The position numbers and the translations under genes are program-made. Below, one piece after another: positions 18,701-57,026 of a DNA stretch of 64,000 nt. The notes under the pieces are model-generated. The model was not told the origin of the DNA. It did not search any database and was given only the letters and a program-made list of their open reading frames with translations. The stretch covers positions 1 to 64,000 of IMG/VR virus record IMGVR_UViG_3300024520_000055; one strand, 5' to 3'. Source of the stretch: a virus. Position 1 is the first letter of the stretch. Each line of letters opens with the position of its first letter.

Positions 18701-21700
18701 GCTCAAGGCCATCTTCGACCGACGCTTCATCCAGACCGCCGCTGACCAAGCCTGGGTTGGTGACGAGGACTTCCTGTCACGCTCCGCGACACAGGACTTC
18801 TTCATGCTAGGTAGCGAGAACCTCACCGAAGCATCGGCAACGCTGTATGGAGCAATCACGGGGCGTGAGGTCGAAGTTACTAGCGGTTCCGAGGAGAAGG
18901 ACCGGCCGTACTACTTCCTCAAGGGAACGTGTTGGAATTGGCGCGACACCATCGGGCTCACGTGGACCATGCGCTTGACCACAGCGTCACCAACAACGGA
19001 TGGGACAGTCATTCCCTCTCCTCCCAGCGCGGACAACACGACTGTCCTCCCGTTGGGAGCAGGGACGGAAATCCGCCTTGGAGCCCAGCCCCAGGACAAC
19101 ATGAAGGGCCCTGTTGCTCACGTTTCGCTGCTCCAACAGACAGCGCCCTACACCATGCCGCGGCAAGGGGAAACGGGGGACAGTGCTGCGGGGTTCATGC
19201 CGGGGTTGGAGGGAGAAGGGGAGTGGGTGGACGCCACCACCTTCCGCGCCATTGACGATGAGAGCGGACCCCCGGTCTTCTCCTCTTTCCTGGAGGACAC
19301 CGATCCCAGCGTGGCCGAGAGACTCCTGGTGGTCTACGACCAGACGGACTCCCGCAAGCGCCTCCTGCTGCGGGTCGAAGAGATCCTTGACGGTAACACG
19401 GCGACGGTTTCGACTGACCTCAACGAGGCGTTCAAGTCCTTCGCTGACCTCCTCACCTGGACGTCAGACATCCCCGTGTCCGAGCGGGTCGAAGGGACAC
19501 GGTTCTCCTGGTTCTTCTTCATCTGGCGTGGTGCGGTGTCGGGAGGCAAGCTGACCTTCCCGAACGTGTTCCAGGCAACGCGCAAGCCCTTCGGGGGAAG
19601 ACTCGCATTCGCCGACGCTCACGTAGGAGACTTCATTGAGGTCGCGCTGGTCATGAACCCGGCCCACTTCTTCCCCGACAAGATCCCGGACACGGGATAC
19701 ACGACTGCCTACTGGGCGTCCGGCGACGACACAGTCTACCTTCGCGAGGACTTGGGGGAAGTGTTCACGAGGGGGATGCTCGGACACGCGCTCTACTTGG
19801 GAGGTACGGAGGACGAGGTCTACTCCATCGTGGACCTGATCGAGGAGCTCGACGACGGCACGTTCCGTGGTGCCGTGTTGGAAGAGGGTGGAGGCGCGGC
19901 CTCGTTCACAGACGATCAGACAGCACAGGTAGCCCGATTCGATTCGAACGTGGTTGAGAACGGAGTGAAAGGAAAAATCGACGCAACGGCGACGCCGGAC
20001 GAGTTCCTCATTGAGCCCTACACCAGTGGCGCGGAGATAGCGGGGACAGAGGACGTCACCTACGGAACTTACTGGGCGTTCGCTGCTGCCGAGGCCACAG
20101 AAATCACGGGGATCGCTGCGGGCATGAAAGTCTTGCTGGCGGTTTCGGGATGGTTCCTGGTTGAAGAGATTGAATTTGACACCACGACAGGAGAGCCCCT
20201 TGGGTTGCACCTGGTCGAGATCGACACTGGCGCTGCGTGGACCGGAGGAGGCCCGCAAGGCTGGACGGTCTACGAAGTCGCCGAGATGCGCAACTATTTT
20301 TCCAAGTTGATCGCAGAGGCATCCGGCGTGATTACCGTGCTGGACAGGGCAGCGCACGGGACTGACAACGACGGAGAACACACCATTGACGACATCGCAG
20401 CGGGCACCGAAATCCTTGCCCCCGCGTACCCCACGCATCGGCCCGAAGCGTATGCCGGGGTTGAACTCGATACAGCCACGCGCGTAGACCAGTCCGATCT
20501 GTCGTGGAAAATGAAGGGCCTCTACCAGCGCTGGGAAATCGCTGCGGTCCTGTCAGAAACTTCGGTCGAACTGGATGTTCCGACGCAGGCCGACTTCGAC
20601 ACGCTGGCGGCGTTTTCATTCAATGGTAGGTATGCGTGGAAGCATGTCACCAAGCGTCTCCAGTGCCCCGGGGCCAACTTCGTCGCACTGGACGCCGACC
20701 AGAAGAAGCTGACGCTCGACAAGAGCGGAGATCCCAACCTCGACGGCTTCGAGTTCGACATCGAAGAAGTTGAGTCAGCCACACAGGTAAAGGTCGACCA
20801 CTACTTCGACGCGCCGCTGTTGAACAGCGGAGCAATGCGTTGGGGGGTGGGGGACGTCCCCTACGCCACGGTCGCGTATCTTCCGGCGTCCACGACGATC
20901 ACCACGGCCATCAATGGTGGCGTTGGGGGAGTCTACGTTCTCTTCCCGCGCGGGGGCACGCTGCCAACGCTCTTGGCGGGCAAGTACCTCTATTTGAACT
21001 TCCCCTACCTGGATGCAGAAAGCGTCTATGACGAGGGCCTCTTCGGAGACTATTCCGACGCGTACCTCACGCTCTCTCCGGCGTTGAACAGCATCGCAGT
21101 CGAAGTGACGACACGCGGGAACGACGGGACCTACGGTGACTGGGCTCTCCTTGATCTCGATACGGATTCACCCCTCCTCGAACCACTGAACGATGCGGCC
21201 GAGGCGCAAGTCTACGCGTGGCCGGTCAACGCGGGTTACACCCAGGCCGAGTATGTCCCCGCGCTCTACACGGGCGAAGCGAAGCACGTCTACGCTGACA
21301 CGTTGGCCGCCAACTGGTTCATTTTCCAGAACCCGGCCTACATGCGTGCCGCGGGTCTTGGGACCCCCGACATGTGTCCCCTGTGCTACATGGAGCTCTC
21401 CACCACCAGGGAGAACGAGCAGACTAAGGTCACTGTGACGCGGCACGTGGTCGGCAAGGAACGCACCGAGGAAGAGGGCTTCTACGACGGAGGTGTGGCC
21501 GAGGCATTCACACAGGTTCTGGACGCACTGCCCCGCTACGAGTCTCCGGCGGCGCCCGGGGCGACCTTCGGCCACCGCGGAGACAAGTTCCCTGTGAGCG
21601 AGGGCTACTTCCTCCGCGTCTCATTCGCACTGATCACGTTTTCCACCACCTCGCAGCATCGGGCCGAGGAACAACTGGAGGATTTGGTTGGGGTTCCTGA

Positions 21701-22013
21701 GTTGCTGGAAGCCAGCCCTGCTCCTGGATATGCAAAGACGACCCTGTGGATTGGTTCCAACGCCGACCAGCAGGGCGAGATCGTCGCAGGGGACCAAGAT
21801 AGAATTCTGGAACTGCGACTGCGCACTGATGAGGTGCGGGCCAAGACGGCATACCAGCTGGACAGCGCGGAGGTCCTGGGAAGCCTGGTTGAGCACACCC
21901 GCCACGGACACGGGACGATGGTCTCCGCACACCTCCAGACAGACGCCCCTCTCTTCTTCAGCGAGGACCTCACGCTCGAGGATCTTCAGGAGTGGTACTC
22001 ACTATGGGTCTGA
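15777..22013 (+). CDS. Giant 2,078-residue virion protein
   Basis: The largest gene of the window. It is rich in beta-strand-type sequence, Asp, Gly, Thr and aromatic residues, with no coiled coil, as in large baseplate or fibre proteins built from repeated beta-domains. Residues about 125-280 look like a jelly-roll (laminin-G/ConA-like) module, judged from the alternating strands in this stretch; this is tentative. There is no protease or hydrolase motif that I recognise. It lies between tape measure and baseplate genes and overlaps the next start by ten bases. Probably a tail-tip or baseplate component, perhaps with receptor-binding capacity. Confidence 0.6.
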   Translation: MPVKIDGAFYDIDSASGDVLNQLKAALRLDDITYHGFTKQSGARVGRDPRAYDDYQQPPYSRIVSNPEHLYYDATGLLWTEEGDVPVPYDPHNYDDIPHGIGPDPALNRHGWVYNFSCRADYIDVSNDAGRLRFEREAAAPTTLDIRGYFWSKRWLRADRGFDLTWQFRELPDSVEEFQQLPLLGSAEGFAAVLITKESGSSNILALSDTGVIGGPAAIPDATSEIDVHFSWDPQTATATLSYTIGGVHTQLATRTFTAELPLRFVNLVFSDFPNYDAGIPGNLVANFGLNEPVYHPERNDASGRYAPGLEGVGAVERSAGPYAGIFAGWWRPLFITTTGWEDLSSVSPLLTPPAGVTENALVDVEADIQVGAGVYADSGGRRVLTWSIIDDRSRMEWQEDIVPGLSKYRCGLRTYSIPLPTGLDEDDIFMGDPAVINGAVCLVFGVKYASGDGQEGIYILDFHADALLHITKDNAYYEMTGLGSGMLHGFFTAISSQHLGDEFRAPALVRDHTPANNKPAAVHNAVPTADLSDFGDAFLLGRREFLSASQAAVAPHQCFAFKVAYADMGTLLITGYEDVQVFAPPIGLQSDARRWNFSGFLAGPIQDNAYSEGQGPTPNKNNLTGIGMAPLGVPSLWYPTARFGGSPTQNGYPRMTPFHQIPGWFFLTQGNMSGNLFKYLSAQGYARYTNIPTGMGLDEFLEQQKNALGAANVGDAPATLGLGLSKTIGRYLAQGRVPVLTDAVQQYDTVLVGPETDGDIIALDTFNAASALFDPEISVGQVVEVTAAGDALNIKEVTITEVLDTYTVKVTPDFNSTESGVTWNHLSSPFELTLEGTGDEGNEIEAADVRKHLGVIAVVVCSSIRNFYRVKNAYPHPTADDQIVIALAPLLLDGESASSFALPRNDAAYLSFMPMPWNVDIDGLAVQAVPVAFQRATDLTDPETIRYWILLRSVDGSVAELRRYQFNYDYDAQKLKAIFDRRFIQTAADQAWVGDEDFLSRSATQDFFMLGSENLTEASATLYGAITGREVEVTSGSEEKDRPYYFLKGTCWNWRDTIGLTWTMRLTTASPTTDGTVIPSPPSADNTTVLPLGAGTEIRLGAQPQDNMKGPVAHVSLLQQTAPYTMPRQGETGDSAAGFMPGLEGEGEWVDATTFRAIDDESGPPVFSSFLEDTDPSVAERLLVVYDQTDSRKRLLLRVEEILDGNTATVSTDLNEAFKSFADLLTWTSDIPVSERVEGTRFSWFFFIWRGAVSGGKLTFPNVFQATRKPFGGRLAFADAHVGDFIEVALVMNPAHFFPDKIPDTGYTTAYWASGDDTVYLREDLGEVFTRGMLGHALYLGGTEDEVYSIVDLIEELDDGTFRGAVLEEGGGAASFTDDQTAQVARFDSNVVENGVKGKIDATATPDEFLIEPYTSGAEIAGTEDVTYGTYWAFAAAEATEITGIAAGMKVLLAVSGWFLVEEIEFDTTTGEPLGLHLVEIDTGAAWTGGGPQGWTVYEVAEMRNYFSKLIAEASGVITVLDRAAHGTDNDGEHTIDDIAAGTEILAPAYPTHRPEAYAGVELDTATRVDQSDLSWKMKGLYQRWEIAAVLSETSVELDVPTQADFDTLAAFSFNGRYAWKHVTKRLQCPGANFVALDADQKKLTLDKSGDPNLDGFEFDIEEVESATQVKVDHYFDAPLLNSGAMRWGVGDVPYATVAYLPASTTITTAINGGVGGVYVLFPRGGTLPTLLAGKYLYLNFPYLDAESVYDEGLFGDYSDAYLTLSPALNSIAVEVTTRGNDGTYGDWALLDLDTDSPLLEPLNDAAEAQVYAWPVNAGYTQAEYVPALYTGEAKHVYADTLAANWFIFQNPAYMRAAGLGTPDMCPLCYMELSTTRENEQTKVTVTRHVVGKERTEEEGFYDGGVAEAFTQVLDALPRYESPAAPGATFGHRGDKFPVSEGYFLRVSFALITFSTTSQHRAEEQLEDLVGVPELLEASPAPGYAKTTLWIGSNADQQGEIVAGDQDRILELRLRTDEVRAKTAYQLDSAEVLGSLVEHTRHGHGTMVSAHLQTDAPLFFSEDLTLEDLQEWYSLWV

Positions 22014-45671: not shown

Positions 45672-46763
45672 TTACTGACTTGCTTCCTGGACCGCAGCCT
45701 CGACGGGAGATACCTCCACGTCTGCATACACCCCAGCCGCCCAGGCCACGACAGCCTCGTGCAGCTTCTCTTGCAGGGGTGCAATCTTCTCCGGTGACAC
45801 CTGCGCCCAATAGCGGAGCTTACCCTCCAGCACAGTGAGCAGATGCTCGGCATCACGGCACTTGGCTCTTGCGAACTGGCTGTCCGGCCCGAGGGTCAGA
45901 CAGTTGGTGACGATCGCTCGCAGACGCCGATAAACATCAGACGGGATATTGGGATGCTCCGCGGTGGAGATGCCCAACACCCGTTGCGGTTTGCCCGGGC
46001 GCTGGAAGCGCGTCTTCTTGGCGTTGATGCGATAGCCCGCCTTCTTGTACCTCTTTCGAACCAGCCTTTCCATTGCGTCGGCGTCTTCACGCGAGATGTC
46101 GTGCGGCGTCGAGAGGTAGACGTTGTCCGAATACCTGGAGTACGTCCACTCACCTTCAGAGAACTCATCGCGCAGCGTCTTCAGAAGAGGTTGGTCGATC
46201 TTCCAATCCACCACCGCGTTGCACACCGCACCCGAGGCCGGGGAGCCCTGGGGGACGATGTAGCGACTGCCCCAGGAGAACGTGTGTGGGACGGTAACGA
46301 GGCTGGAAAGCAGGGACGCCACGTCCGACGAGTATCCCAGGTAATCACGGAACATGTCCTTGACGGGCCCCTGCCGCGTCGAGGTGAAGAAGTCCTTGAT
46401 GTCCAGGTGCAGAATGAGCTTCTTCTTGACGTGATCAGGCGGCGTTTCCAGCACACCCCGACCAGGAACGTAGGCAGCAACGTGCGTCCCGAACGGGATC
46501 GGTTTCAGGAAGCGCGCATAGAGCACTTTCTGAATGCGTTTGAGACGCATGTCCGGGGCGTGGATCAGGCGCTTCCCTCCCGAGAACTTCGGGATGGTGA
46601 AGACCTTGTAGAGCTTGCCGCGATCGACAATCAGCCACCACATGGTCTTTGCCTTGATCCCCAGTGCGCAGGACAGGTCGAAGTCATTGAGGATCGGGGG
46701 CAACCCGAACGCGGGGGCTTTGGGGAGGAAGAATCCTTCGACGCTTGTATTGCGGAATGGCAT
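45672..46763 (-). CDS. Retron-like reverse transcriptase with YSDN active site
   Basis: A 363-residue protein with motifs in order: IPKFSGGKRLIHAPDMRLKRIQ (RT1/2, about 58-79); LILHLDIKDFF (motif A, Asp121); IVPQGSPASGAVCN (motif B); YSRYSDNVYLS (motif C); GYRINAKKTRF and VLGI (motifs D/E). The PQGSPxS form and the segment before motif A (VPGRGVLETPPDHVKKK) resemble retron enzymes, in which NAxxH occupies the latter place. Motif C has Asn214 where nearly all active enzymes have a second Asp. No C-terminal endonuclease is present, so it is not a group II intron enzyme, and no IGxxxSQ motif, so it is not a diversity-generating type. It is coupled to the upstream gene; no msr/msd-like RNA lies immediately upstream. 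Confidence 0.85.
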   Translation of the reverse strand: MPFRNTSVEGFFLPKAPAFGLPPILNDFDLSCALGIKAKTMWWLIVDRGKLYKVFTIPKFSGGKRLIHAPDMRLKRIQKVLYARFLKPIPFGTHVAAYVPGRGVLETPPDHVKKKLILHLDIKDFFTSTRQGPVKDMFRDYLGYSSDVASLLSSLVTVPHTFSWGSRYIVPQGSPASGAVCNAVVDWKIDQPLLKTLRDEFSEGEWTYSRYSDNVYLSTPHDISREDADAMERLVRKRYKKAGYRINAKKTRFQRPGKPQRVLGISTAEHPNIPSDVYRRLRAIVTNCLTLGPDSQFARAKCRDAEHLLTVLEGKLRYWAQVSPEKIAPLQEKLHEAVVAWAAGVYADVEVSPVEAAVQEASQ

Positions 46764-47563
46764 TAGATGTCCTCCACGTTGACGATCTTGCGCTCGCCCC
46801 CGCCTGTCTCGATAACGATTTCACCGAGGTCTTCCAGGTCTTCCGTCCCCGCCTCTTTCTGCCGTGCGGCTGCGTCTGCCTCGAATTCGTCGGCACCCTT
46901 CTTGTAGTCACCGTCGGTATCCGGCTTCGTGCAGAGGAACTCGTAGCAGTCGATGTCCCCAAAGACGCACTGCTTCATCAGACGTTGGAGCTGTCGAGGA
47001 CAGATGGAACACGGAGACCCAATGGGTCCTTCCAACTGACCAAGCAGGAAAACATCTTCAGTCAGGTCGGCGTAGCGCGGCGCGTCCTTGTCATTTGAGA
47101 TCTTGCGGTCGCTACTGTTGGACCAGAAGCGACTGACCAGATACTGAAGGACACCCCGGTTCTTCTGAACGCGAGGACGATACTCGGTAGGCTCGTCGTC
47201 CACCCGGTCCTGGGACTTCCGCTGCTCCTTCATCCAGAAGCTCGTATCCCAGGTGGAGTTTGGGCGGTTACGAACGGCGATGGGGACCATGATCATCCAT
47301 GGGCCGTTCTTCTGCATGTAGGCACAGATGGCAGCGAACTCTTCCTTGATCCCCGAGAGGGCAGTGAGCATTACTTGGGCGTTTCGGCATGAGGCACTGA
47401 GGCACAAGGCGTATCGCCAGTACCTCATCATGTCGTCACGGAGGTCTTCCGGAACAACATAGAAACGTTCGAACGGGATCTTGTGGACGTGCTTGCGCCC
47501 AACCTTGATCTCCGCTACGCCCCCACGATGGAGGGCGTCCAGGGCGGTTAGTGCCTTACTCAT
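46763..47563 (-). CDS. Hypothetical protein coupled to the reverse transcriptase
   Basis: A 266-residue protein joined to both neighbours by one-base stop/start overlaps (TGATG), so it is translated together with them. Helical, with a CSIC pair and two further cysteines near residues 190-220 that might bind metal. The acidic C-terminus may be disordered. The family is not recognised. The coupling suggests a shared function of metallopeptidase, this protein and reverse transcriptase. Confidence 0.6.
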   Translation of the reverse strand: MSKALTALDALHRGGVAEIKVGRKHVHKIPFERFYVVPEDLRDDMMRYWRYALCLSASCRNAQVMLTALSGIKEEFAAICAYMQKNGPWMIMVPIAVRNRPNSTWDTSFWMKEQRKSQDRVDDEPTEYRPRVQKNRGVLQYLVSRFWSNSSDRKISNDKDAPRYADLTEDVFLLGQLEGPIGSPCSICPRQLQRLMKQCVFGDIDCYEFLCTKPDTDGDYKKGADEFEADAAARQKEAGTEDLEDLGEIVIETGGGERKIVNVEDI

Positions 47564-49143
47564 CAGATGTACTTCCCCATGTGCAAAACGGTCCCGGGGA
47601 GTCCGGGATCACTTCCGTTAGGTGAAATGAGCCAGAACAACGGGACCTCTAGCGGGTTGGTGGGCACAGAAGCCCCTCCGTCTGTATAGTACACGACCAC
47701 ATCGGGTTTGAGCTCGACAGCCTTCCGCAGTGCCGGGAGGAATGCCGTCCCGCCGCGTCCGTGGATGCGGAAAGAGTCGGTAAACTGGGGTTCGATCTTG
47801 TCGTCTTTTACCAGGTAAACTCCGTCCTCGCGCACGTCCGCATCGCACTCGATGACCCAAAGCTGCACGTCAATGTCGTGGCGCTTGCACAATGCGATGA
47901 TCTCGGCGATGGCCTCCTCGAGTTCGGGCGTCGACATTGACCCGCTCGTGTCAATGATGAACACGAGCTTGTATCGAAGCGCGCGCTCCGTGCCCGGGTA
48001 GGGCAAGATCCGATACCGCCAGAACATAGGCCACCTGCGAACCTTGGGACGGATCATCGACTCGTTGATCTTGTTGCTCATCATCGAGCTGATGGCGGGG
48101 GACAGGATATCCTGCCACGGCACTCTCGTGTCGCGGAGCCAGATCTCGAGGTCCTCCTCCATGCCGCCCATCCCGGATCCGCACGCCCGGAGGTGGTCCT
48201 TGACGGCCCTTCGGAAGAGCTTCCGCATCTGTCGCCGTATTTCGTGGGCTGCGCCTTCCCTCTCGCCTCCCGTCATTGCCCCCGCGTCGTCAACGAAGAA
48301 GTGATACGAGAGGACGTACTTCCGCATACGGAAAGCAAGGTCGCGGTAGACCTGGGGGACGCCGTCGGGGATTTTCTCTCCGTCTTGTGTCAGGAACTCT
48401 ACCTTGTCCGGGGGCGCACCCTTTTGTGGGGTGCTCATGTTCACGGTGCCGATCAAAGGAGTGATGTTGGGCGGTGCGATGCCTCCCTCGGGCGGTTCTG
48501 CGGACCAGTCCACAGGACCCCCAAAGCGCTTCAGCAACTTCTCTGCGATTTGCTCGTCGAGAAGCATCTCCTGGTAGTACTCGTAGTCCTTCAGGTCGTC
48601 GAGGTCGGCATGCTCCGGGAGCACTGTCTCGATTCGGTGCGCACCAGTTCCCAGAATTCCGTCCGCTGACAGGAAGCCCTTACTACGCAAATACGAATTG
48701 TCGGCCATGTCCATGGCCAGGTTGGCGGTCAGATTGAAAATGTAGCGCATAGAATCGTCGATCGCGGCCATCTTGCGCATGTCCAGGAACCGGGGGATGT
48801 GGTCGTGCAGCAGGTGGACGAACTCGTGGTGCACCACGAAGAGGACTTCGGAGAGCGTGAGGTGCGCGAGTCTCTCGGGGTCGAGAAGAAGGCACACACG
48901 GCTCTCCTGCACCGCAATCGCGCCTGCGTACCCGAGACCGGGCACCATTCTCTTGTTGATCTGACTGAGCACCCGAGCGACGAAGCTGCGTGCTGCGTCC
49001 ACGTGGCTCTGCACGAAGAAGCCGAGGATGTCATCCAGCCCATACCGATCCCCAATGGGATCGTCGGGATTTATCCCCCGGCCCAGTGTGGGGTCGAAGA
49101 CTTGCTGCTTGGCACCAGTATTTGCTACCATGGTGTCTGCCAT
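47563..49143 (-). CDS. vWA protein with metallopeptidase-like domain (DUF2201-like)
   Basis: A 526-residue protein. The N-terminal part has HHEFVHLLHDH (HExxH at 106-110, third His115), the zinc motif of DUF2201-type putative peptidases. The C-terminal 135 residues form a von Willebrand A domain: FIIDTSGSMS (MIDAS DxSGS), then GRGGTAF and VVYYTDGG. Such proteins pair with MoxR-type AAA+ ATPases, and one is encoded at 52254-53510. Together they probably form a chaperone or remodelling complex. Starts at 49131 or further upstream are possible; none has a clear ribosome-binding site. Confidence 0.8.
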   Translation of the reverse strand: MADTMVANTGAKQQVFDPTLGRGINPDDPIGDRYGLDDILGFFVQSHVDAARSFVARVLSQINKRMVPGLGYAGAIAVQESRVCLLLDPERLAHLTLSEVLFVVHHEFVHLLHDHIPRFLDMRKMAAIDDSMRYIFNLTANLAMDMADNSYLRSKGFLSADGILGTGAHRIETVLPEHADLDDLKDYEYYQEMLLDEQIAEKLLKRFGGPVDWSAEPPEGGIAPPNITPLIGTVNMSTPQKGAPPDKVEFLTQDGEKIPDGVPQVYRDLAFRMRKYVLSYHFFVDDAGAMTGGEREGAAHEIRRQMRKLFRRAVKDHLRACGSGMGGMEEDLEIWLRDTRVPWQDILSPAISSMMSNKINESMIRPKVRRWPMFWRYRILPYPGTERALRYKLVFIIDTSGSMSTPELEEAIAEIIALCKRHDIDVQLWVIECDADVREDGVYLVKDDKIEPQFTDSFRIHGRGGTAFLPALRKAVELKPDVVVYYTDGGASVPTNPLEVPLFWLISPNGSDPGLPGTVLHMGKYI

Positions 49144-49158
49144 TGCAGGAGGACTGAC

Positions 49159-50160
49159 ATGATCGTCCATGACCAGTTTCACGATCCTTCCTTCCGGGTT
49201 CTGAAGCGCCTCGCGCAAGAGTACCCGGATGCAGTTGGGTTTACCAAAACGGCCGAGGTGGACACCACCAATGGCGGAGACCTCCCCGACCGGGCATTCG
49301 CGTGGCCCGAGGAGCGCCGCTATCCAATTCACACCAAGGAGCACGCAGCACTGTCGGTCCTGTACCGGACCAAGTGTGCTTCCGTCCCGAGCCACGTTGA
49401 GGAGAACCTCAAGAAGGCGCAGGACATCTACGATCTCGACGCGATGCCGATGGAGAAGGTGGCCGCGGCTCCAAGGGACGACTCGGAGGAATACCTGATC
49501 CCGAGCCTCAAGAGGTTCAGGGTCAAGACCGCGGCCGAAGTTCTGCCTGCGGCATACGCGCTTCAGCGCCATTACCGCAAGATGGACATCCCGACACGGG
49601 CCCTCGCCTGCACCCGCCTGCTCAAGATCGCACAGGCGAATGGCATCGAGCTTCCCCCCACCCTCCAGAAGATGGCGGGGGTCACCGTCTCTTCCGCGCC
49701 GCGCCTCCTCGAAGCGCTGGAGGTTCGGAAAGAAGCGTCGGCACAGAATCCCATCGTCCAAGCCGGGTTCCAGAAGATGGCGGCGCTCGTGGCTTCGTTG
49801 CCTCCCGACGAATTCCAGAACCCAGAGGTCCTGCGAAAGATCGCGGGGGGCCTGACCGAACTGGACGGGCGCGCAGGGCTGGCACAGCACTACGACAAGA
49901 CGATCCCCGACCCGCTCCAGTCGGTGTACAACACCGAGAAGACCGCAGAGCCCATGCTCCCTCTGGCTGGACACCAGGTGCCCGTGACGCGCCTGATGGG
50001 CATCGACAAGGAGGCCTACGCCGATGCGTTCGGCCCCGACTTCGTGGGAGAGGTCTTCAAGGAAGCAGAAGCTGACCCGAGCGCACTGGCCCAGGTTCTC
50101 CCCACGATGCCTCGCGACCTCCAGTCCGTTCTCTACCGCAACGTCTTCGGTGTTCGTTAG
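49159..50160 (+). CDS. Predicted virion or packaging-related protein ahead of RNA array 1
   Basis: A 333-residue protein with GCAGGAGGACTGAC before its ATG. Largely helical; two copies of a QKMA-type pattern within a Leu/Ala-rich repeat-like centre (about 150-240). No family is recognised. It is divergent from the vWA gene with only 15 bases between starts, and its stop is followed directly by the first RNA module, so any transcript of it would run into array 1. Confidence 0.55.
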   Translation: MIVHDQFHDPSFRVLKRLAQEYPDAVGFTKTAEVDTTNGGDLPDRAFAWPEERRYPIHTKEHAALSVLYRTKCASVPSHVEENLKKAQDIYDLDAMPMEKVAAAPRDDSEEYLIPSLKRFRVKTAAEVLPAAYALQRHYRKMDIPTRALACTRLLKIAQANGIELPPTLQKMAGVTVSSAPRLLEALEVRKEASAQNPIVQAGFQKMAALVASLPPDEFQNPEVLRKIAGGLTELDGRAGLAQHYDKTIPDPLQSVYNTEKTAEPMLPLAGHQVPVTRLMGIDKEAYADAFGPDFVGEVFKEAEADPSALAQVLPTMPRDLQSVLYRNVFGVR

Positions 50161-50161
50161 T

Positions 50162-50380
50162 CCTGCTTTCTAAGCGCTTTTCACCTTGAACGGGCCTGGA
50201 GCCTGCTTTCTTAGAGAGGCCATGATCGTAGTGGCGTAGCCAAGCGCAGCGCCTACGATCATGGATTCCTGTCCCGCTTTCTCGGGGTCCACTCCTCCGC
50301 CGACGGCTACGTCGACGGCTGCCTCGTAGAGGGAAGGCATTGCCAACGTATCGCTGGCTACCACTAAGGTACAAAGCAGG
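50162..50380 (+). ncRNA. Structured RNA unit 1A (three 5' modules)
   Basis: CCTGCTTT at 50162 and 50202 each pair perfectly with AAAGCAGG (50373-50380); the third module, CCCGCTTT, has one mismatch. A 12-bp perfect hairpin occupies 50220-50231/50253-50264. The 3' module is GCCAACG-TAT-CGCTGGC (one A.C mismatch) then TACC/GGTA. Family unknown. Confidence 0.75.
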
Positions 50381-50390
50381 AAAAGGAAAA

Positions 50391-50741
50391 CCTGTTTTCT
50401 TGGAGACCCGCGAGGCAAGAGGCGCAGCCTGTGCCGTGTCGGGGTATTTGGCCGTTGCTTTCTAGGGAGGCGTGTTATTCCCAGAGACGACGCAGGAGGG
50501 TCGGGAATGACACGTTCTTGGACCTTGCTTTCTACGGGGCTTGGGATCCGCAGTGCTGTGTGGACCGAAGGGAACTCACAGCGGCGAGGATCCGAGCCTC
50601 TGGCGCGTTGCTTTCTGCGAGGTGATACGGGACGTACGGACTCCTGTCCCGCCTGCTTTCTCAGGGGCCTCCCAGTCGGCGACAAGGTGTCGAGAGTCAA
50701 TGCTCGCGTATCGCGAGCTACCCGTCAGGGTACAAAGCAAG
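50391..50741 (+). ncRNA. Structured RNA unit 1B (five 5' modules)
   Basis: The closing strand AAAGCAAG (50734-50741) is exactly complementary to CTTGCTTT at 50524-50531 and to seven bases of the modules at 50455 and 50608. Internal hairpins include a 12-bp one (50471-50482/50503-50514). The 3' module is GCTCGCG-TAT-CGCGAGC, then TACCC-GTCA-GGGTA, then C. Confidence 0.75.
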
Positions 50742-50751
50742 CGAATATGGA

Positions 50752-50864
50752 AACGTCTCCTTAGGGAGGGTCCGCCGAGGCGGCCAGCCCCAGTTCGAGC
50801 TGAGTACGTAGTCTCAGGGTACTGCGTCCGCGTAACGCGGACTTCCCAAACGGGACGAGACGTT
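50752..50864 (+). ncRNA. Structured RNA unit 1C
   Basis: A single complete unit. P1 is AACGTCTC (50752) with GAGACGTT (50857). After P1 comes CTTAGGGAGG. The 3' module is GTCCGCG-TAA-CGCGGAC, then TCCC-AAAC-GGGA, then C, P1 and GAAAAC. Confidence 0.8.
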
Positions 50865-50876
50865 GAAAACTGGAGT

Positions 50877-51000
50877 CCACTTCCTCAGGGTTAGTGCTCG
50901 AGCTCGTCGACACGGTCTCGAGGAGTACAGCTCCTCAGACCGGAACGAAGTCCCGAACTCTGTGTTGGCGTATCACCAACTGCCAAGTGGCACGAAGTGG
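50877..51000 (+). ncRNA. Structured RNA unit 1D
   Basis: P1 is CCACTTC (50877) with GAAGTGG (50994). CTCAGGG follows the 5' strand. The 3' module is GTTGGCG-TAT-CACCAAC (one C.A mismatch), then TGCC-AAGT-GGCA, C, P1 and AAAAG. Confidence 0.8.
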
Positions 51001-51009
51001 AAAAGCGAT

Positions 51010-51153
51010 GTCTATCTTCTCGGGGTTGGCGCCGGCCGGCGCCGGGCGAGCTCGAGCTGAGCGCACCTCTTCCGAGCCGCAAGGCGAGGAAGAGGTTCTC
51101 TCAAGGGGCAACGTCCGCGTAGCGCGGACATCCCTTACGGGATCAAGATAGAC
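51010..51153 (+). ncRNA. Structured RNA unit 1E
   Basis: P1 is nine pairs, GTCTATCTT (51010) with AAGATAGAC (51145). An internal hairpin ACCTCTTCC/GGAAGAGGT encloses GCC-GCAA-GGC, a GNRA tetraloop on the plus strand only. The 3' module is GTCCGCG-TAG-CGCGGAC, then ATCCC-TTAC-GGGAT, then C. GTAAAAAC follows. Confidence 0.8.
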
Positions 51154-51163
51154 GTAAAAACTT

Positions 51164-51439
51164 TCAGGCACGGATTTGTGCTTTCAATCGAGACGAGGCA
51201 CTGAACGCGACCTGGGGGGTTGGTCGCAGGCGTCTCACTGCACCACTCTGGACGTCCCGAATCTTTCTCGCCTTGCGCGTGAAGATAGAGAACGATCCGA
51301 AAGACGGAATGCGAACACCTTTCTCTTTTACCAAACCGAGGGTCAGAACCCTGAAGACGGCATCGACGGCAGCATTGGCCATGCTGATAGGGCAGTCCAA
51401 TTCTTGAGCTACCATCCGGGCGACATCGGACTTGGTCAT
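51164..51439 (-). CDS. HU/IHF-family DNA-binding protein, second copy
   Basis: A 91-residue protein, the standard HU length. It starts MTKSDVARMVAQEL with a strong AGGAGG upstream, has IPSFGSFSIFTRKARKIRD (turn and beta-arm) and ends VAFSASSRLKAQI, the VxFxPSxxLK element with Pro replaced by Ala. It converges on RNA array 1; its stop lies 11 bases past the end of unit 1E. HU proteins can bind structured RNA as well as DNA, so a link to the array is possible but unproven. Confidence 0.85.
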   Translation of the reverse strand: MTKSDVARMVAQELDCPISMANAAVDAVFRVLTLGLVKEKGVRIPSFGSFSIFTRKARKIRDVQSGAVRRLRPTPQVAFSASSRLKAQIRA

Positions 51440-51460
51440 CGCGCCCTCCTCCGGTATAAT
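51432..51460 (+). promoter_or_regulatory. Sigma-70-type promoter
   Basis: TTGGTC, 17 bases, then a perfect TATAAT (51455-51460), 49 bases before the ATG of the next plus-strand gene. The -35 half lies inside the start of the divergent HU-like gene. Confidence 0.6.
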
Positions 51461-51508
51461 CTGGACGCATTTTACGGGAACACCGCCCCGCGCGCAACCG
51501 GAGAAACC

Positions 51509-52276
51509 ATGATCGAGCACGTTGGATACGCCAAACAGATGTCGTTCCTGGCGCAGGGGGCAAAGGCAGCGCGCGACGCACCTGAAGAAGAGTGGAACAA
51601 GCGCGCGGCCAAAGAGTTGCTAGCGAAAGAAGACGCGCAACTGCTCCCCGTCGTCGTTGCGTCCCTGACCCTTCTCGGGACCGAGATCGCAACGTGGGAA
51701 CCCGAAAGCATCTGGCTGGAGTACAAAGACAAAGCCGGAGGCGAGTTGCCCCCGATCAATCGGGAGAAGATTCTGGCTTCCCTCGCCATGACGCTGAACC
51801 CCGTCTTCTTCTGGGACCACCGCGCATTCCAGAACATCGTTTCGGTGGCCAACGGTGAGCCCAGCCAGCCGGACACATTGCAGGAGCCGACGCCTGCGGA
51901 GCTTTTGTGGGGCGCTGCGATCGGCGAGGCTGTCTGGAAAAGCGTTCACTCCGAAGCACCCCCGTGGGGCGATGAGATCCAACGGTTCGCCGCCGTTGTC
52001 CTTTTCCGCGGGGGTCTCCAGGTGGCCCCAACACCGTTAGCGTGGTGCCAGGACCACCTGGACATGCTCTTTCGGAACTCACAGGGGCCCAGCCAGGACA
52101 AGCTGGAGGCGGAGTGGAGCAAACTTGACCAGAGCAGGCTCCCCGACCACAAGTTCGAGGAGACTCCGGTTGATGTCCAACTCCATACTCTCGCGACCAT
52201 GTTCCTGTACGCGCAATCGCAAGCCACGCAGACAGCCAACCAGCTCCTGAAACTCAGGAATGATCATTCGCGTTGA
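51509..52276 (+). CDS. Hypothetical protein under its own promoter
   Basis: A 255-residue, mostly helical protein with CCGGAGA before the ATG. Rich in Leu, Ala and Glu, with conserved-looking Trp residues. No membrane segment or catalytic motif. It ends inside the last codons of the convergent MoxR gene (23-base overlap). Function unknown; context is packaging or host takeover. Confidence 0.6.
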   Translation: MIEHVGYAKQMSFLAQGAKAARDAPEEEWNKRAAKELLAKEDAQLLPVVVASLTLLGTEIATWEPESIWLEYKDKAGGELPPINREKILASLAMTLNPVFFWDHRAFQNIVSVANGEPSQPDTLQEPTPAELLWGAAIGEAVWKSVHSEAPPWGDEIQRFAAVVLFRGGLQVAPTPLAWCQDHLDMLFRNSQGPSQDKLEAEWSKLDQSRLPDHKFEETPVDVQLHTLATMFLYAQSQATQTANQLLKLRNDHSR

Positions 52277-53510
52277 AGTCGTCCCGCATCCGAGAGAGCC
52301 CGGAAAGCAGGGACCGCGACGCGTTCTTGAAGCTCGGGTTCGAGAACATCGCCTGCCCGACCTTTTCCATGTAGGTCTTGTACTCTTCCTCCTCGCCCGG
52401 TTCGGCGCGGAGCTTGCGAAAGAACACCTGCATCAAGTCTCGCATCCCTGCGTTGCTCAGGTCGTCCATCAGCCGCGCGAGGGAAGGGACGATTTTCTGT
52501 GGGTCCGGGTAGGACCTCATTTGCAAGGCCACAGCGTGTAGAAGTTCAGAGATGACCGTGTGGTTCCCCTGCTCCATGTGGTACACGACCTTCCGGTGCA
52601 CCTGGCTGCGGTCGTTTTCGTATTTGGCCAGAACCTCGGCGGGATCGATGGAGCCCGAGTCCTTTTGGAGGTCCTCGACAACCTTCTCGGCGACGCCCAT
52701 TCCCACCATTGACCCGAGAGTGGGTTCCAGGAGGGCCAGTTGTCTCCGCGAGAGGCCGCCAATGTTGTCCGTGTTCGCCTGCGCGATCAACGCCTTGAGA
52801 ACATCGTCCACATCGTCCCACACGGCAGGACACCCATACGGGCCCTCGTGGTTGTCTCGCATTTTGACGTCGTGGATCACGGAGGGGTTGGACCGCAGGT
52901 GCTTCAGCAACGGGGGAAACATCTTCTTCCGTTTGGTCGCGTATTTGATGTAGTCGTCTCCCGTCGGCTCGACCCAGAAGAAGCGCAGCCTGCGCCGCAC
53001 TGCGGGATCTCGGAACTTGGGGCTGGCATCGTATAGCCCCGAAGCCGGGTTCATGGTCAGCGCAACGCACCAGTTGTCCGGAAGGACGAACTGCATGAAC
53101 TTGCGCATCCGCGTATCCACGAGGCTGAAAATGTGCTTGAGGACACGGTCGTCACAACGACCAACGTCGTCCATGACCATGACGCCGGGCTCGGTGCTGT
53201 TCTGGATACTTTGGAGGAAGTCCGCGAGCACGGGGTGGAGTTGCGTCATCTCCTGATCGGGAATCATCGTTCCCCATTCGGCCCCTTCGGTGAAGTTGGC
53301 CATGGGAACAACCTCGGCCCGCCACTTGAGTTCTTCCTCAATGTAGCGAACGGTTTCTGTTGTCTTCCCCACTCCCGAGTCCCCGATGAACAGCGGCACC
53401 TTCTTCTGTGGGCCGCACCACGAGGTCTCACAGTGGAAACCTATCTGACCAACTGATATGATGGGGCACTGTAGACGGTCAACGAACTTGGCCTTGGGAT
53501 CTCTGGCCAT
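52254..53510 (-). CDS. MoxR/CbbQ-type AAA+ ATPase
   Basis: A 418-residue protein. Walker A is FIGDSGVGKT (41-50); Walker B is MVMDDVGR (Asp114, Asp115); sensor 1 is LTMNPASG (151-158); an arginine-finger-like RDPAVRRRL follows. This is the MoxR family, which works with vWA-domain partners, matching the vWA/metallopeptidase protein at 47563-49143 even though the genes are 3 kb apart. A role in assembly or remodelling of a metal-dependent or virion complex is plausible. Its ribosome-binding region GGAGCCTCC is a palindrome shared with the divergent terminase gene. Confidence 0.85.
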   Translation of the reverse strand: MARDPKAKFVDRLQCPIISVGQIGFHCETSWCGPQKKVPLFIGDSGVGKTTETVRYIEEELKWRAEVVPMANFTEGAEWGTMIPDQEMTQLHPVLADFLQSIQNSTEPGVMVMDDVGRCDDRVLKHIFSLVDTRMRKFMQFVLPDNWCVALTMNPASGLYDASPKFRDPAVRRRLRFFWVEPTGDDYIKYATKRKKMFPPLLKHLRSNPSVIHDVKMRDNHEGPYGCPAVWDDVDDVLKALIAQANTDNIGGLSRRQLALLEPTLGSMVGMGVAEKVVEDLQKDSGSIDPAEVLAKYENDRSQVHRKVVYHMEQGNHTVISELLHAVALQMRSYPDPQKIVPSLARLMDDLSNAGMRDLMQVFFRKLRAEPGEEEEYKTYMEKVGQAMFSNPSFKNASRSLLSGLSRMRDDFNANDHS

Positions 53511-53524
53511 GTTGGAGGCTCCTT

Positions 53525-55192
53525 TTGGGTGCTCCCAGTAAAAACCCGATCGAAGTTCGGCGCTCCGAGTTTACCGAGAAAGCCCTGCGCCTTGAAGGGC
53601 GCCCGTTCAGTTTTAAGGGGTACGAACTCTTCATCCCTATCTACGATTCCCACGCTGATGAAACTCATCTGATGACGGGGCGCCAAGTCGCGAAATCCAC
53701 AACGTGCGCCAACTTCAGTCTCGCCGAAACCGCGATCATTCCTTTCTTCAAGATCCTTTACACCTCACCGACCCGCGAGCAGACTCGCAAGTTCTCCACC
53801 ACCAGGGTGGGGAAGACCATGGCGCACTCTCCGGAGTATCGCAACCTGTACGTCCATCCTGAGCTGTCGCAAAACGTGCTCCAGAAAATCATGCGTAACG
53901 GATCGGAGTTGCACTTCACCTACGCCGCCGACGACCCCGACCGGGCCCGCGGAATCTCTGCCGACAGGCTCCTCGCAGACGAGACCCAGGATGTGCATTA
54001 CGACGCAGTCATCCCGGTCCTCCGTGAGTGTCTGTCCGCCTCGAAGTACGCTTACATCACCACTGCTGGGACTCCGAAGACCATGGAGAACTCAATGGAG
54101 TTCCTGTGGCGGAGGTCAACGCAGCACGAGTGGGGTCTGCGCTGCCCCGGGTGTTCGAAGATCAACTTCATTATCGATGAGAAGTCGATCGGCCTGAAAG
54201 GTCCTATCTGCAAATACTGTGGGCACCTGCTCGACGTGGTTCCGAACTACCACCCGCGCTTCGACAAGCGGAATGGCTTCTGGGTACCTGCCAACCCAGA
54301 CAAGGATAGACAGGGCTTCCATATCCCGCAGCCGGTGCTGTCTCTCCACGCCAACGACCCGAAAAAGTGGAGGATGCTCCTTTCCAAAATGCCCGACGGG
54401 GACGCGGGATACTCCCTTTCGCGGTTCAAGAACGAGGTCCTGGGCGTCTCCGACGCTTTGGGCAAGCGTATGATCACGCGCGATCATCTCATCTCACTGT
54501 GCGACGCCAATGAGACGTTCGCGTCACCTCCAAATAAGGGGTGGAACAAGGGAATCAGCAACATCGCCGCAGGGATCGACTGGGGAGGTGGTAGCGTTAT
54601 CAAGAAGGGCACCTTGTCCGACATGGACGTCGTCTCCCGTACGGTGCTGTGGATCTGGGGGATGTGGAAGGGGCGTGCGTACAAATGTCTCTTCTACAAA
54701 GTGTTCCCCGCGGACCACCCCATCCACGACATCGCGGAGATCATCCACTACCTGAAAGAGTTCAACGTTGAGATGGTTTATGGCGACGCGGGCGAAGGAC
54801 ACGTTGCCAACAGCATGATCCAGGAAGCCCTCGGACCGGGGCGTCTCTACCAATGCCAGTATGGTTTCCACAAGAAACCGCTCACCTGGAATGCACACGA
54901 TCGCTACCTGTTGGACCGCACCACCATCATCGACTGCTTCTTCCTCCAGCGCGTTCTAAAAAAGAGGGTGGTCTTCGCCAACAAACAGCAGATGACTGCG
55001 GCGTTTGATGACTTCCTCGCCGAGTATGAGGAGGTCACCATGGACGGAACGGGGCGCCGCGTGTGGCGGCATGCCCCGGCCGAGCCCGATGACGCGTTGC
55101 ATGCAGCTATCTTTGGCTGGCTCGCAATGATGAGCCTGACCACAGACTACAACGACATCGCCGCTTTCGACACGTCCCTGATTACGCAGTAA
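53525..55192 (+). CDS. terL: Terminase large subunit
   Basis: A 555-residue protein. The ATPase domain has a Walker A-like GRQVAKST (52-59) and Walker B RLLADETQD (Asp152, Glu153). A zinc knuckle CPGC...CKYC (206, 209, 228, 231) lies between domains. The nuclease domain starts AAGIDWGGG (Asp351), and DDALHA near the C-terminus fits the last metal ligand. It cuts and translocates DNA into the capsid. The start is TTG with GGAGG six bases ahead; no ATG is suitable. The first RNA module of array 2 begins four bases after its TAA. Confidence 0.88.
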   Translation: MGAPSKNPIEVRRSEFTEKALRLEGRPFSFKGYELFIPIYDSHADETHLMTGRQVAKSTTCANFSLAETAIIPFFKILYTSPTREQTRKFSTTRVGKTMAHSPEYRNLYVHPELSQNVLQKIMRNGSELHFTYAADDPDRARGISADRLLADETQDVHYDAVIPVLRECLSASKYAYITTAGTPKTMENSMEFLWRRSTQHEWGLRCPGCSKINFIIDEKSIGLKGPICKYCGHLLDVVPNYHPRFDKRNGFWVPANPDKDRQGFHIPQPVLSLHANDPKKWRMLLSKMPDGDAGYSLSRFKNEVLGVSDALGKRMITRDHLISLCDANETFASPPNKGWNKGISNIAAGIDWGGGSVIKKGTLSDMDVVSRTVLWIWGMWKGRAYKCLFYKVFPADHPIHDIAEIIHYLKEFNVEMVYGDAGEGHVANSMIQEALGPGRLYQCQYGFHKKPLTWNAHDRYLLDRTTIIDCFFLQRVLKKRVVFANKQQMTAAFDDFLAEYEEVTMDGTGRRVWRHAPAEPDDALHAAIFGWLAMMSLTTDYNDIAAFDTSLITQ

Positions 55193-55194
55193 AT

Positions 55195-55997
55195 CGCCTT
55201 CTCTTGGAGTCCCAGCGGAGTCGCGTGGACCTCCCGTCAGGGACGGTGGACGCGGCTCCGCTGGGATCTTGTCGCCTTCTCTTCGCGTCAGCCGGACTGA
55301 CGTCCCAACGGGCGCAGCCTCGTTGGGACAGATGGTCCGGGGGACCTTGTCGCCTTCTCTCAATGTCCACGACGTGCTCGGCGTGCCGTGAGCTCGTCGT
55401 AGGAATCTGTCGCCCTTTTCGAAGTGTGCGCCGTGGGCGTCGCTCTCGAGCGACGCACGCGTTTGCATCCTGGCCCTTTTCTTGGTGTGCCAGAAGAACC
55501 AGGTCCGGGTGCAGCCCGGAACCAGGTCTTCGGATACCTGTGCCCTTTTCTACGTGGTAGCAAGGCTGGCCGACCGTAGGGAGCTCTTCTTGCTGACACC
55601 TGTCGCCCTTTTCTACGGCGGCAGTCCGAGAGGAGCTCGAAGCCCTGCTTCCTTGGTACAAGGAAGAGGGGAAGCTGAGCTCCTCCAGGACGGCGGTCTG
55701 GCCCTTTTCTGGGCGCTCTGGATCGGGCCGCCACGAGCTGGTCGGGCGTTTCCGCCCAGCGTGGTGGCGGCCGGATACAGGGGTGCGGCCCTTTTCTACG
55801 AAGGCAAGGTCTCTCACTGTGTGAGACCTGGCGTTCTGGCCCCTTTCTTGAAGGCCTCGTCTCGTGAGCTCGTGGAACGAAGTGTAAGGAGCTGCGGGAG
55901 ACGGGGACATTCTGGAACCCCTTTCTGGGCGTGTAGAGCCTGAGCACAGTCGTTGCTTGCGTATCGCAAGCTGCCTCGGGTCAAGGCGCAAAAGGGC
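55195..55997 (+). ncRNA. Structured RNA unit 2A, large composite
   Basis: Three CGCCTTCTC modules, then six identical GCCCTTTTC and two near-copies, closed by a single AAAAGGGC (55990-55997) that is exactly complementary to all six. The 3' module is GCTTGCG-TAT-CGCAAGC, then GCCT/AGGC, then GC. Large hairpins occupy each interval, such as 9 bp at 55726-55734/55764-55772. Confidence 0.75.
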
Positions 55998-56000
55998 AAA

Positions 56001-56417
56001 CTTTTCTCGGTGGCGCGGAAACGAGTCGTGAGTCGAAGACGAAACGAATCGTCACCGGCACGAGGACCTTCTCTCAACGTCGCCAGGCGTCCCCTCCGTC
56101 CCAGGATGGGACAAGGAGGGGTCCAGTGGGGAGGTTGGACAATCACCTTCTCTTGGCGAACTCACGGCGGCGTTCGAGCGCGCCAGGGTACGCAGTACCC
56201 AGCGAGACGACGCCGGATCCGGCTTTCTTACTGCACACGACCGAAGCAGGGGCGACCCTGGCAGGGAGTGGGCTGTCAGAAAGACGGGTGTTGCCTGACG
56301 AGGTATGCCTTCTCTCAGGGGACGCATCCGCGACCAGGCTGTCGAAGACTAAGAACAACGATTCTGGCGATCCATGTGCGCGTAACGCGCACTACCACAA
56401 CAGTGGTACAGAAGGCG
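56001..56417 (+). ncRNA. Structured RNA unit 2B, composite
   Basis: Five 5' modules, closed by AGAAGGCG (56410-56417). This strand pairs with seven bases of its nearest module (56307) but with eight bases of the three CGCCTTCT modules at the start of unit 2A, so it could close the whole 1.2 kb. The 3' module is GTGCGCG-TAA-CGCGCAC, then TACCAC-AACA-GTGGTA, then C. Confidence 0.75.
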
Positions 56418-56431
56418 AAAGTATCTGGGTT

Positions 56432-56694
56432 AACCTTTTTCTCAGGGGAGGGAGCACGTGATCCGGATAAACCATACGCTCGAGGTCCTCCGGCGGAAGG
56501 GCGCCAGGTCGAGGTGACGGGATCGGAGCTCCCGGACCCCGCGGCACGTCGACCTGCCGAAACCAGCCCCACGCGGGCTGGGGCGCAACACGACGCTCGT
56601 ATCACGAGGCAGGTCGACGGTGCCCAGCGGCAATGTCCGCGTAACGCGGACGGCTCGCACGCATGCTGCAAATGCTTGCAAGCGCAAAAAGGTT
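56432..56694 (+). ncRNA. Structured RNA unit 2C
   Basis: P1 is AACCTTTTT (56432) with AAAAAGGTT (56686), nine pairs. CTCAGGGG follows the 5' strand. A perfect 11-bp stem GTCGACCTGCC (56548-56558/56608-56618) encloses a 7-bp CCAGCCC/GGGCTGG hairpin. The 3' module is GTCCGCG-TAA-CGCGGAC with an enlarged second hairpin (56653-56683), then GC. AAAC follows P1. Confidence 0.8.
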
Positions 56695-56716
56695 AAACTG
56701 TATTTATATCGGTCTG

Positions 56717-56835
56717 GCTCTTTCTCGGGGGACCTCCCCGTGGCCATCAAGCTGCTCGTCTTGATGGCCGCGCGGTTGTAGCTACCGCACCTCGTTGCGT
56801 GCGTAGCGCACGCTCGCAGTATTGCGACAAAGAGC
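56717..56835 (+). ncRNA. Structured RNA unit 2D, overlaps the Hfq-like stop codon
   Basis: P1 is GCTCTTT (56717) with AAAGAGC (56829). CTCGGGGG follows. A perfect 10-bp hairpin GGCCATCAAG/CTTGATGGCC lies at 56742-56769. The 3' module is GCGTGCG-TAG-CGCACGC, then TCGCA-GTAT-TGCGA, then C; TAAAC follows. The last P1 base lies in the stop codon of the convergent gene. Confidence 0.8.
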
Positions 56836-57026
56836 TAAACTGGGTCGATTGTACTAATGTCCTTGATGTAGATCAGAGTCCCGTCCAGCACGAGGCTGTA
56901 CTTATCGAACTCATCGATCTTTCCCGTGAGCACTGCGGGGTGTGGGCTGATGCGGCGCACCTCGATCCTGGTGCCGCTTTTCTCCCACGTTGCAAGTCTC
57001 TTCTGGTCAACTCGGGGTTTGGGCAT
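56835..57026 (-). CDS. Hfq/Sm-like RNA-binding protein
   Basis: A 63-residue protein, close to the Hfq core length. SGTRIEVRRI, then AVLTGKIDEFDKYSLVLDG (Sm1: LxGxIxxFDxYxVxL) and LIYIKDISTIDP (Sm2: compare YKHAISTIxP) follow the Sm fold in order. The KH pair of Hfq is KD here, so U-binding in the proximal pore may differ. Hfq-type hexamers bind small RNAs and A- or U-rich tracts. It is the last gene of the replication operon and directly abuts array 2, whose units carry U-rich and A-rich flanks. Its start overlaps the upstream gene by 20 bases. Confidence 0.7.
   Translation of the reverse strand: MPKPRVDQKRLATWEKSGTRIEVRRISPHPAVLTGKIDEFDKYSLVLDGTLIYIKDISTIDPV

What the first reader, a model, noticed from the sequence alone, without database searches (positions are those of the whole stretch)
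50161..56840. Two arrays of an apparently undescribed structured RNA with a covarying closing stem
Nine 3' modules (hairpin N4GCG-UAN-CGCN4 or near, second hairpin, C, then closing strand, then A-rich) each end in a strand with an exact partner in a 5' module that is followed by C-U-N-N-G-G. The closing helices all differ: CCTGCTTT/AAAGCAGG, CTTGCTTT/AAAGCAAG, AACGTCTC/GAGACGTT, CCACTTC/GAAGTGG, GTCTATCTT/AAGATAGAC, GCCCTTTT/AAAAGGGC, CGCCTTCT/AGAAGGCG, AACCTTTTT/AAAAAGGTT, GCTCTTT/AAAGAGC. The first hairpins covary too (GTC/GAC, GCT/AGC, GTT/AAC, GTG/CAC, GCG/CGC outside a conserved CG-UAN-CG or near). Structure is thus conserved while sequence drifts, which argues for selection on RNA. I know no ribozyme, riboswitch, retron RNA, tRNA-like or packaging RNA with this plan.
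Basis: partly seen in the sequence, partly recalled or inferred. Interest (0 to 1): 0.95.

Follow-up and report, generated by a model that had tools for sequence, protein, structure and literature searches.

The report
Phage retron with many DNA templates

Summary
There, each of the nine "3' modules" reads a1 - invariant G - small hairpin - 7-bp triloop hairpin (retron msr), followed by one to several variable hairpin arms, each ending in a copy of a2 complementary to that a1 (msd - a2). I count 9 msr and 29 msd-like units. The same strand carries a retron-type reverse transcriptase (45672-46763): PADLOC retron profile E=1.5e-58, and the top 18 PDB fold matches of its model are retron RTs. About 35 syntenic loci carry this RT, and many carry one-msr/one-msd RNAs of the same plan, antisense, just past terL. 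A structural finder gave 27 hits on the RT strand versus 1 on the other. One-msr/many-msd arrays recur in two other lineages (L225: five msds; L029: four).

This is a retron-like system, new in three ways: near-core in a phage family, RNA unlinked from the RT gene, and a multi-template layout. It lacks the retron VTG motif and the contiguous cassette, and msDNA has not been shown. The window RT has YSDN, not YxDD, so its activity needs proof. Function is inferred: a diversified msDNA library for phage-host or phage-phage conflict.

The parts
45672..46763 (-). retron-type reverse transcriptase, 363 aa; catalytic motif YSDN (family: mostly YxDD), LLG in place of retron VTG
   Evidence: Pfam RVT_1 2.3e-14; PADLOC RT_XIII 1.5e-58; PDB sequence hits all retron RTs; AF2 fold top 18 PDB hits retron RTs; family alignment
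46763..47563 (-). 266-aa protein overlapping the RT start; four invariant Cys (zinc-binding-like) across 22 relatives; possible partner of unknown function
   Evidence: no Pfam match; model too weak for fold search
56797..56836 (-). block 2D msr: a1 + G + h1 + 7-bp triloop h2
56716..56796 (-). block 2D msd + a2 (unit 29)
56635..56693 (-). block 2C msr
56433..56634 (-). block 2C msd + a2 (unit 28, 194-nt complex arm)
56376..56417 (-). block 2B msr
56000..56375 (-). block 2B: msd + a2 units 27-24, plus doubtful unit 23
55955..55997 (-). block 2A msr (a1 GCCCTTTT)
55412..55954 (-). block 2A: eight successive msd + a2 units (22-15) whose a2 match this one a1
55195..55411 (-). three further msd + a2 units (14-12) whose a2 (AGAAGGCG) match the a1 of block 2B, not 2A
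51113..51152 (-). block 1E msr
51011..51112 (-). block 1E msd + a2 (unit 11)
50964..51001 (-). block 1D msr
50876..50963 (-). block 1D msd + a2 (unit 10)
50826..50864 (-). block 1C msr
50752..50825 (-). block 1C msd + a2 (unit 9)
50702..50741 (-). block 1B msr
50391..50701 (-). block 1B: five msd + a2 units (8-4)
50342..50381 (-). block 1A msr
50162..50341 (-). block 1A: three msd + a2 units (3-1)

Best explanation
The arrays are template/primer RNAs of a phage-encoded retron-like system, transcribed from the minus strand, the same strand as the reverse transcriptase gene. In each block, a1 pairs with an a2 copy. That places the invariant G right after a1 next to the 3' end of an msd arm. The RT recognises the msr hairpins (probably the 7-bp triloop hairpin), primes from the 2'-OH of that G, and copies the arm into a short hairpin cDNA (msDNA). 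In the window, L090, L029 and L225, one msr is followed by four or more arms (up to eight, or eleven counting three with a neighbour's a2), each with its own a2, so one primer can pair with one of several templates at a time and the locus yields a set of different msDNAs. Shown: the anatomy, covariation, strand, RT family and fold, synteny and recurrence. Inferred: priming, cDNA synthesis and one-primer/many-template use. Most likely role, inferred and weaker: a fast-changing set of DNA-RNA hairpins made during infection as decoys or sensors in phage-host or phage-phage conflict.
For: RT: profile and fold matches to retron RTs; the phage RTs form one clade, support 99. RNA: msr covariation; 29 a2 versus 9 a1; plan on minus strand only. 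Relatives: gene order PolA-[RNA]-TerL-AAA-P255-cpl453-VWA-P266-RT conserved. Finder for a1|G-h1-h2-msd-G|a2 gave 16 hits on the RT strand versus 1 opposite in non-window RT loci, one on each strand looking like chance, and 27 versus 1 downstream of TerL in the TerL loci. Single-msd units fold as classic retron RNAs. One-msr/many-msd arrays in L225 (five msds ending CCAAG|TGAACTG) and L029 (four). Bacterial relatives show a similar triloop hairpin between a1 and a2 just upstream of the RT. Review PMC6868368: a1/a2 of about 8-30 nt, with the priming G in or immediately 3' of a1.
Against: No transcript or msDNA data. The window RT has YSDN where most relatives have YxDD (L030 also YSDN). The family has LLG instead of the retron VTG motif. 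The RNA is about 3.4-10 kb from the RT gene. Wobble bias of the extra arms towards the cDNA sense (28:3 in the window) was a post hoc split and did not replicate in L225/L029 (6:6). More than half of RT-bearing relatives gave no unit with the strict finder. No effector gene was identified. Complementarity to several a2 copies could be duplication debris rather than use.
Confidence: 0.85

Rival explanations
1. The RNAs are retron-derived but only the arm next to each msr is used; the extra arms are duplication debris or spacers.
For: Classic one-msr/one-msd units dominate in relatives; some extra a2 copies have mismatches (units 4, 23, 24, 26); several arms could not be aligned between window and L090.
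Against: Eight a2 copies in block 2A stay perfectly or wobble-complementary to one a1; multi-arm arrays also persist in L090 and occur in L029 and L225 with exact a2 copies. Debris would decay.
Confidence: 0.25
2. A structured RNA with no reverse transcription, for example a protein-binding or packaging RNA beside terL, transcribed from either strand.
For: It sits next to terL in most relatives; the arms of the window fold slightly better on the plus strand.
Against: Retron a1-G-msr-msd-a2 order, strand and conserved co-occurrence with a retron RT; the msr hairpin resembles the triloop hairpin of bacterial retron relatives; array 1 is not beside terL.
Confidence: 0.08
3. DNA-level elements (attC-like or origin hairpins) or a diversity-generating template.
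For: Many hairpins; palindromes such as GAGCTC enriched (8 against 0.9 expected).
Against: No significant match of arms to the rest of the genome, so no template/variable-repeat pair; structure strongly strand-specific; G.U pairs in msr on one strand only.
Confidence: 0.03

Closest known systems
Bacterial retrons, nearest RT profiles type XIII and III-A (PADLOC); NCBIfam retron St85 and Ec67 models hit below their cut-offs
   Same: RT family and fold; a1/a2 helix, G right after a1, msr hairpins with a triloop, msd hairpin
   Different: Phage near-core gene rather than a cargo or defence cassette; LLG not VTG; RNA unlinked from RT; several msds behind one msr; no known effector
Retron-Nex1 (Ne160) of Nannocystis exedens, cited in PMC6868368 (Lampson and Rice 1997)
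   Different: Described as duplicated msr-msd copies; not, as far as I found, one msr followed by many msd-a2 units, nor a phage system
Retrons in prophages (Ec73 in phiR73; Ec86 and Ec67 beside the cos site and packaging gene of 186-like prophages; PMC6868368)
   Same: Retron carried by phage DNA; Ec86/Ec67 lie next to a packaging gene
   Different: Those are cargo cassettes; here RT and RNA are at fixed places in a family of phages
Diversity-generating retroelements of phages
   Same: Phage-encoded RT with a template RNA
   Different: No template/variable-repeat pair found; RT groups with retrons by profile and fold

Membership tests
Retron | Reverse transcriptase of the retron clade | tested here: met
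   PADLOC RT_XIII 1.5e-58, 26/26 family members; PDB fold hits 1-18 are retron RTs; NCBIfam retron models hit but below curated cut-offs
Retron | Retron RT signature motifs NAxxH and VTG | tested here: not met
   H conserved but xAxxH variants; LLG or VLG in all members where it could be read
Retron | Catalytic YxDD | tested here: inconclusive
   Met in nearly all relatives; window and L030 have YSDN
Retron | Complementary a1/a2 ends with the priming G immediately after a1 | tested here: met
   9 of 9 window blocks; relatives were selected by a finder that requires it, so judged by strand control
Retron | Structured msr recognised by the RT | tested here: met
   Two hairpins, second 7-bp with triloop, covarying; recognition itself not tested
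Retron | msd hairpin directly 5' of a2 | tested here: met
Retron | msr-msd and RT in one contiguous cassette | tested here: not met
   RNA about 3.4-10 kb from RT with other genes between, in window and relatives
Retron | 2'-5' branched msDNA product | not testable with these tools
   needs experiment
Retron (defence) | Associated effector | tested here: inconclusive
   Only a conserved Cys4 protein (46763-47563) is coupled to RT; no family or fold match
Known Rfam RNA family | Match at gathering score | tested here: not met
Diversity-generating retroelement | Template repeat matching a variable repeat in a gene | tested here: not met
   No significant match of arrays to rest of genome

The most novel reading that the evidence does not exclude
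A family of phages uses a retron as near-core machinery, and some members have turned it into a multi-template system: one msr primer serves up to eight to eleven interchangeable msds (29 in this genome), making a rapidly diversifying library of msDNAs that acts against host defences or competing phages.
Probability: 0.5. Interest if true: 0.92.

Novelty: new variant of a known kind. Interest (0 to 1): 0.85.

Why it matters
Retrons are known as bacterial anti-phage systems that make one kind of msDNA from an RNA next to the RT. Here the RT and its RNA sit at fixed genome positions across a large phage family, and in some members the RNA has been multiplied into arrays with one primer and many templates. 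If the arms are copied, it shows a natural way to make many short DNAs from one priming RNA, makes the question of what phages do with msDNA testable, and could inform multiplexed retron tools.

Tried and rejected
Rfam search at gathering and permissive thresholds: nothing. RT as a single-protein query in viral contigs: nothing, solved by an alignment query. The window-built msr model R1 did not find the divergent relatives (L029's unit missed), so a structure-based finder with an opposite-strand control was used. DGR and DNA-hairpin readings: no matching repeats elsewhere in the genome. Wobble asymmetry as proof of cDNA-level selection: strong in the window's extra arms (28:3) and in its near relative L090 (14:3), but the split was made after seeing the data and it did not replicate in L225/L029, so it is not relied on. 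RT absence versus RNA absence: RT-lacking L096, L270/L274 and L279/L281 also lack detectable units, but finder sensitivity is too low for a test. P266 structure: pLDDT 63, no fold match. Promoter scan uninformative.

Full report
Setting. The window is part of an 83,447-bp virus record: a tailed-phage genome with terminase large subunit (53525-55192 +), family A DNA polymerase, primase, a MoxR-type AAA ATPase, a VWA/DUF2201 protein and an HU-like protein. The reported arrays lie in two convergent intergenic gaps: array 1 between the end of a plus-strand ORF (50160) and the HU-like gene, array 2 between the end of terL and small minus-strand genes.

Check of the observation. A strand test shows that the RNA is the minus strand. 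The pattern 'a1 followed by G, later AG followed by the complement of a1' occurs 8 and 15 times on the minus strand of arrays 1 and 2. It occurs 0 and 1 times on the plus strand, and shuffles give means 0.68 and 2.38. Wobbles in the triloop hairpin are G.U only on the minus strand (CCAGCGATACGTTGG, GTTGGTGATACGCCAAC). Read this way, nine msr-like elements (a1, G, small hairpin, 7-bp hairpin with NUA triloop) precede 29 arm units, each ending in an a2. Of 232 a1/a2 positions, 212 are Watson-Crick and 10 G.U. The msr alignment covaries well above shuffled and slid controls.

The reverse transcriptase. ORF 45672-46763 on the same strand is a reverse transcriptase. Its best defence-library profile is retron RT type XIII, E=1.5e-58. 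All PDB sequence matches are retron RTs, and its AlphaFold model (pLDDT 92) has retron RTs as its first 18 fold matches. In a tree with bacterial and plasmid retron RTs, the 26 phage RTs form one clade with support 99. Departures: LLG where retrons have VTG, xAxxH, and in this window YSDN instead of YxDD.

Relatives. Viral contigs hold about 35 loci (some near-duplicates) with the gene order PolA - TerL - AAA - P255 - cpl453 - VWA - P266 - RT. Searching with TerL finds 320 relatives, of which the best 80 were kept. By my count of the table, among kept loci with at least 9.7 kb upstream of TerL, 30 have the RT and 5 do not. In many, the gap between PolA and TerL holds RNAs that fold as a textbook retron: 8-13-bp a1/a2, G after a1, hairpin, triloop hairpin, msd hairpin. 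Because the finder requires pairing, I judged it by strand. In the RT loci other than the window it gave 16 hits on the RT strand and 1 on the other, with one of the 16 (L019, just upstream of its RT) looking like chance. Downstream of TerL it gave 27 versus 1. Bacterial relatives show similar triloop hairpins directly upstream of their RT genes, for example GGGCGGCGTTTCGCCGTCC and GTGCGGCGTTACGCCGCGC; there the relaxed finder gave 53 versus 30 by strand, so this is supportive only.

What is unusual. In block 2A of the window, one msr is followed by eight arms whose a2 match its a1, then three arms whose a2 match the a1 of the neighbouring block 2B. The near relative L090 (TerL 89%) keeps this layout, while several arms can no longer be aligned. 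Further cases in distant relatives are L225, with one msr (a1 CAGTTCA) and five arms each ending CCAAG|TGAACTG, and L029, with one msr and four arms ending in G|CAGTACC; L091 may have two arms on one block. One primer with interchangeable templates is the simplest reading. Whether pairing is in cis or in trans is unknown.

Mechanism and function. By homology, the RT would prime at the G after a1 and copy the arm next to the paired a2 (general retron scheme in PMC6868368). This is inferred, since no msDNA was observed. Fast arm turnover and repeated copy-number expansion suggest selection for diversity, as in a conflict. Fixed position beside terL and near-core retention would also fit a role in replication or packaging. 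I favour a decoy or sensor library, at perhaps 40% among functions. No effector was identified; a conserved four-cysteine protein overlaps or abuts the RT start.

Membership. It works like a retron, and the RT belongs to the retron RT clade. It is not a canonical retron: the contiguous cassette and the VTG motif were tested and not met. I therefore file it as a new variant of a known kind, not as an ordinary member.

Literature. Searches of the held open-access library found no phage-core retron family and no one-msr/many-msd arrays. The closest precedent is Retron-Nex1, with duplicated msr and msd repeats away from an RT (PMC6868368). Subscription papers and preprints may be missing, so novelty is limited to what was searched.

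Weak points. The YSDN motif in this genome, absence of expression data, incomplete detection in RT-bearing relatives (the strict finder is positive in a minority of loci), and an arm-wobble signal that was post hoc and did not replicate.

Noticed in passing
window 45672-46763: RT catalytic motif YSDN instead of YxDD, shared only with L030 among the aligned relatives.
   Followed up: partly
window 46763-47563: 266-aa protein with four invariant cysteines, overlapping the RT start; a counterpart sits before the RT in most relatives; no family or fold match.
   Followed up: partly
window 55195-55411: Three arms of block 2A carry a2 copies matching the a1 of the neighbouring block 2B; L090 has four arms with similar a2.
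   Followed up: partly
window arrays 50155-51165 and 55185-56845: GAGCTC occurs 8 times in the arrays against 0.9 expected from the rest of the genome; reason unknown.
   Followed up: no
L096, L270/L274, L279/L281: Relatives by TerL with no RT found in the fetched stretch, and no retron-like RNA detected after TerL.
   Followed up: partly
L224 (G006, 165-kb phage record of L098): A more distant phage (TerL 30%) also carries a related RT (E=2.6e-65).
   Followed up: no
window 47563-48900 and 52254-53510: MoxR-type AAA ATPase and DUF2201/VWA protein pair conserved between TerL and RT across the family.
   Followed up: no
window 15777-22013: Very long ORF of 2078 aa, not examined.
   Followed up: no
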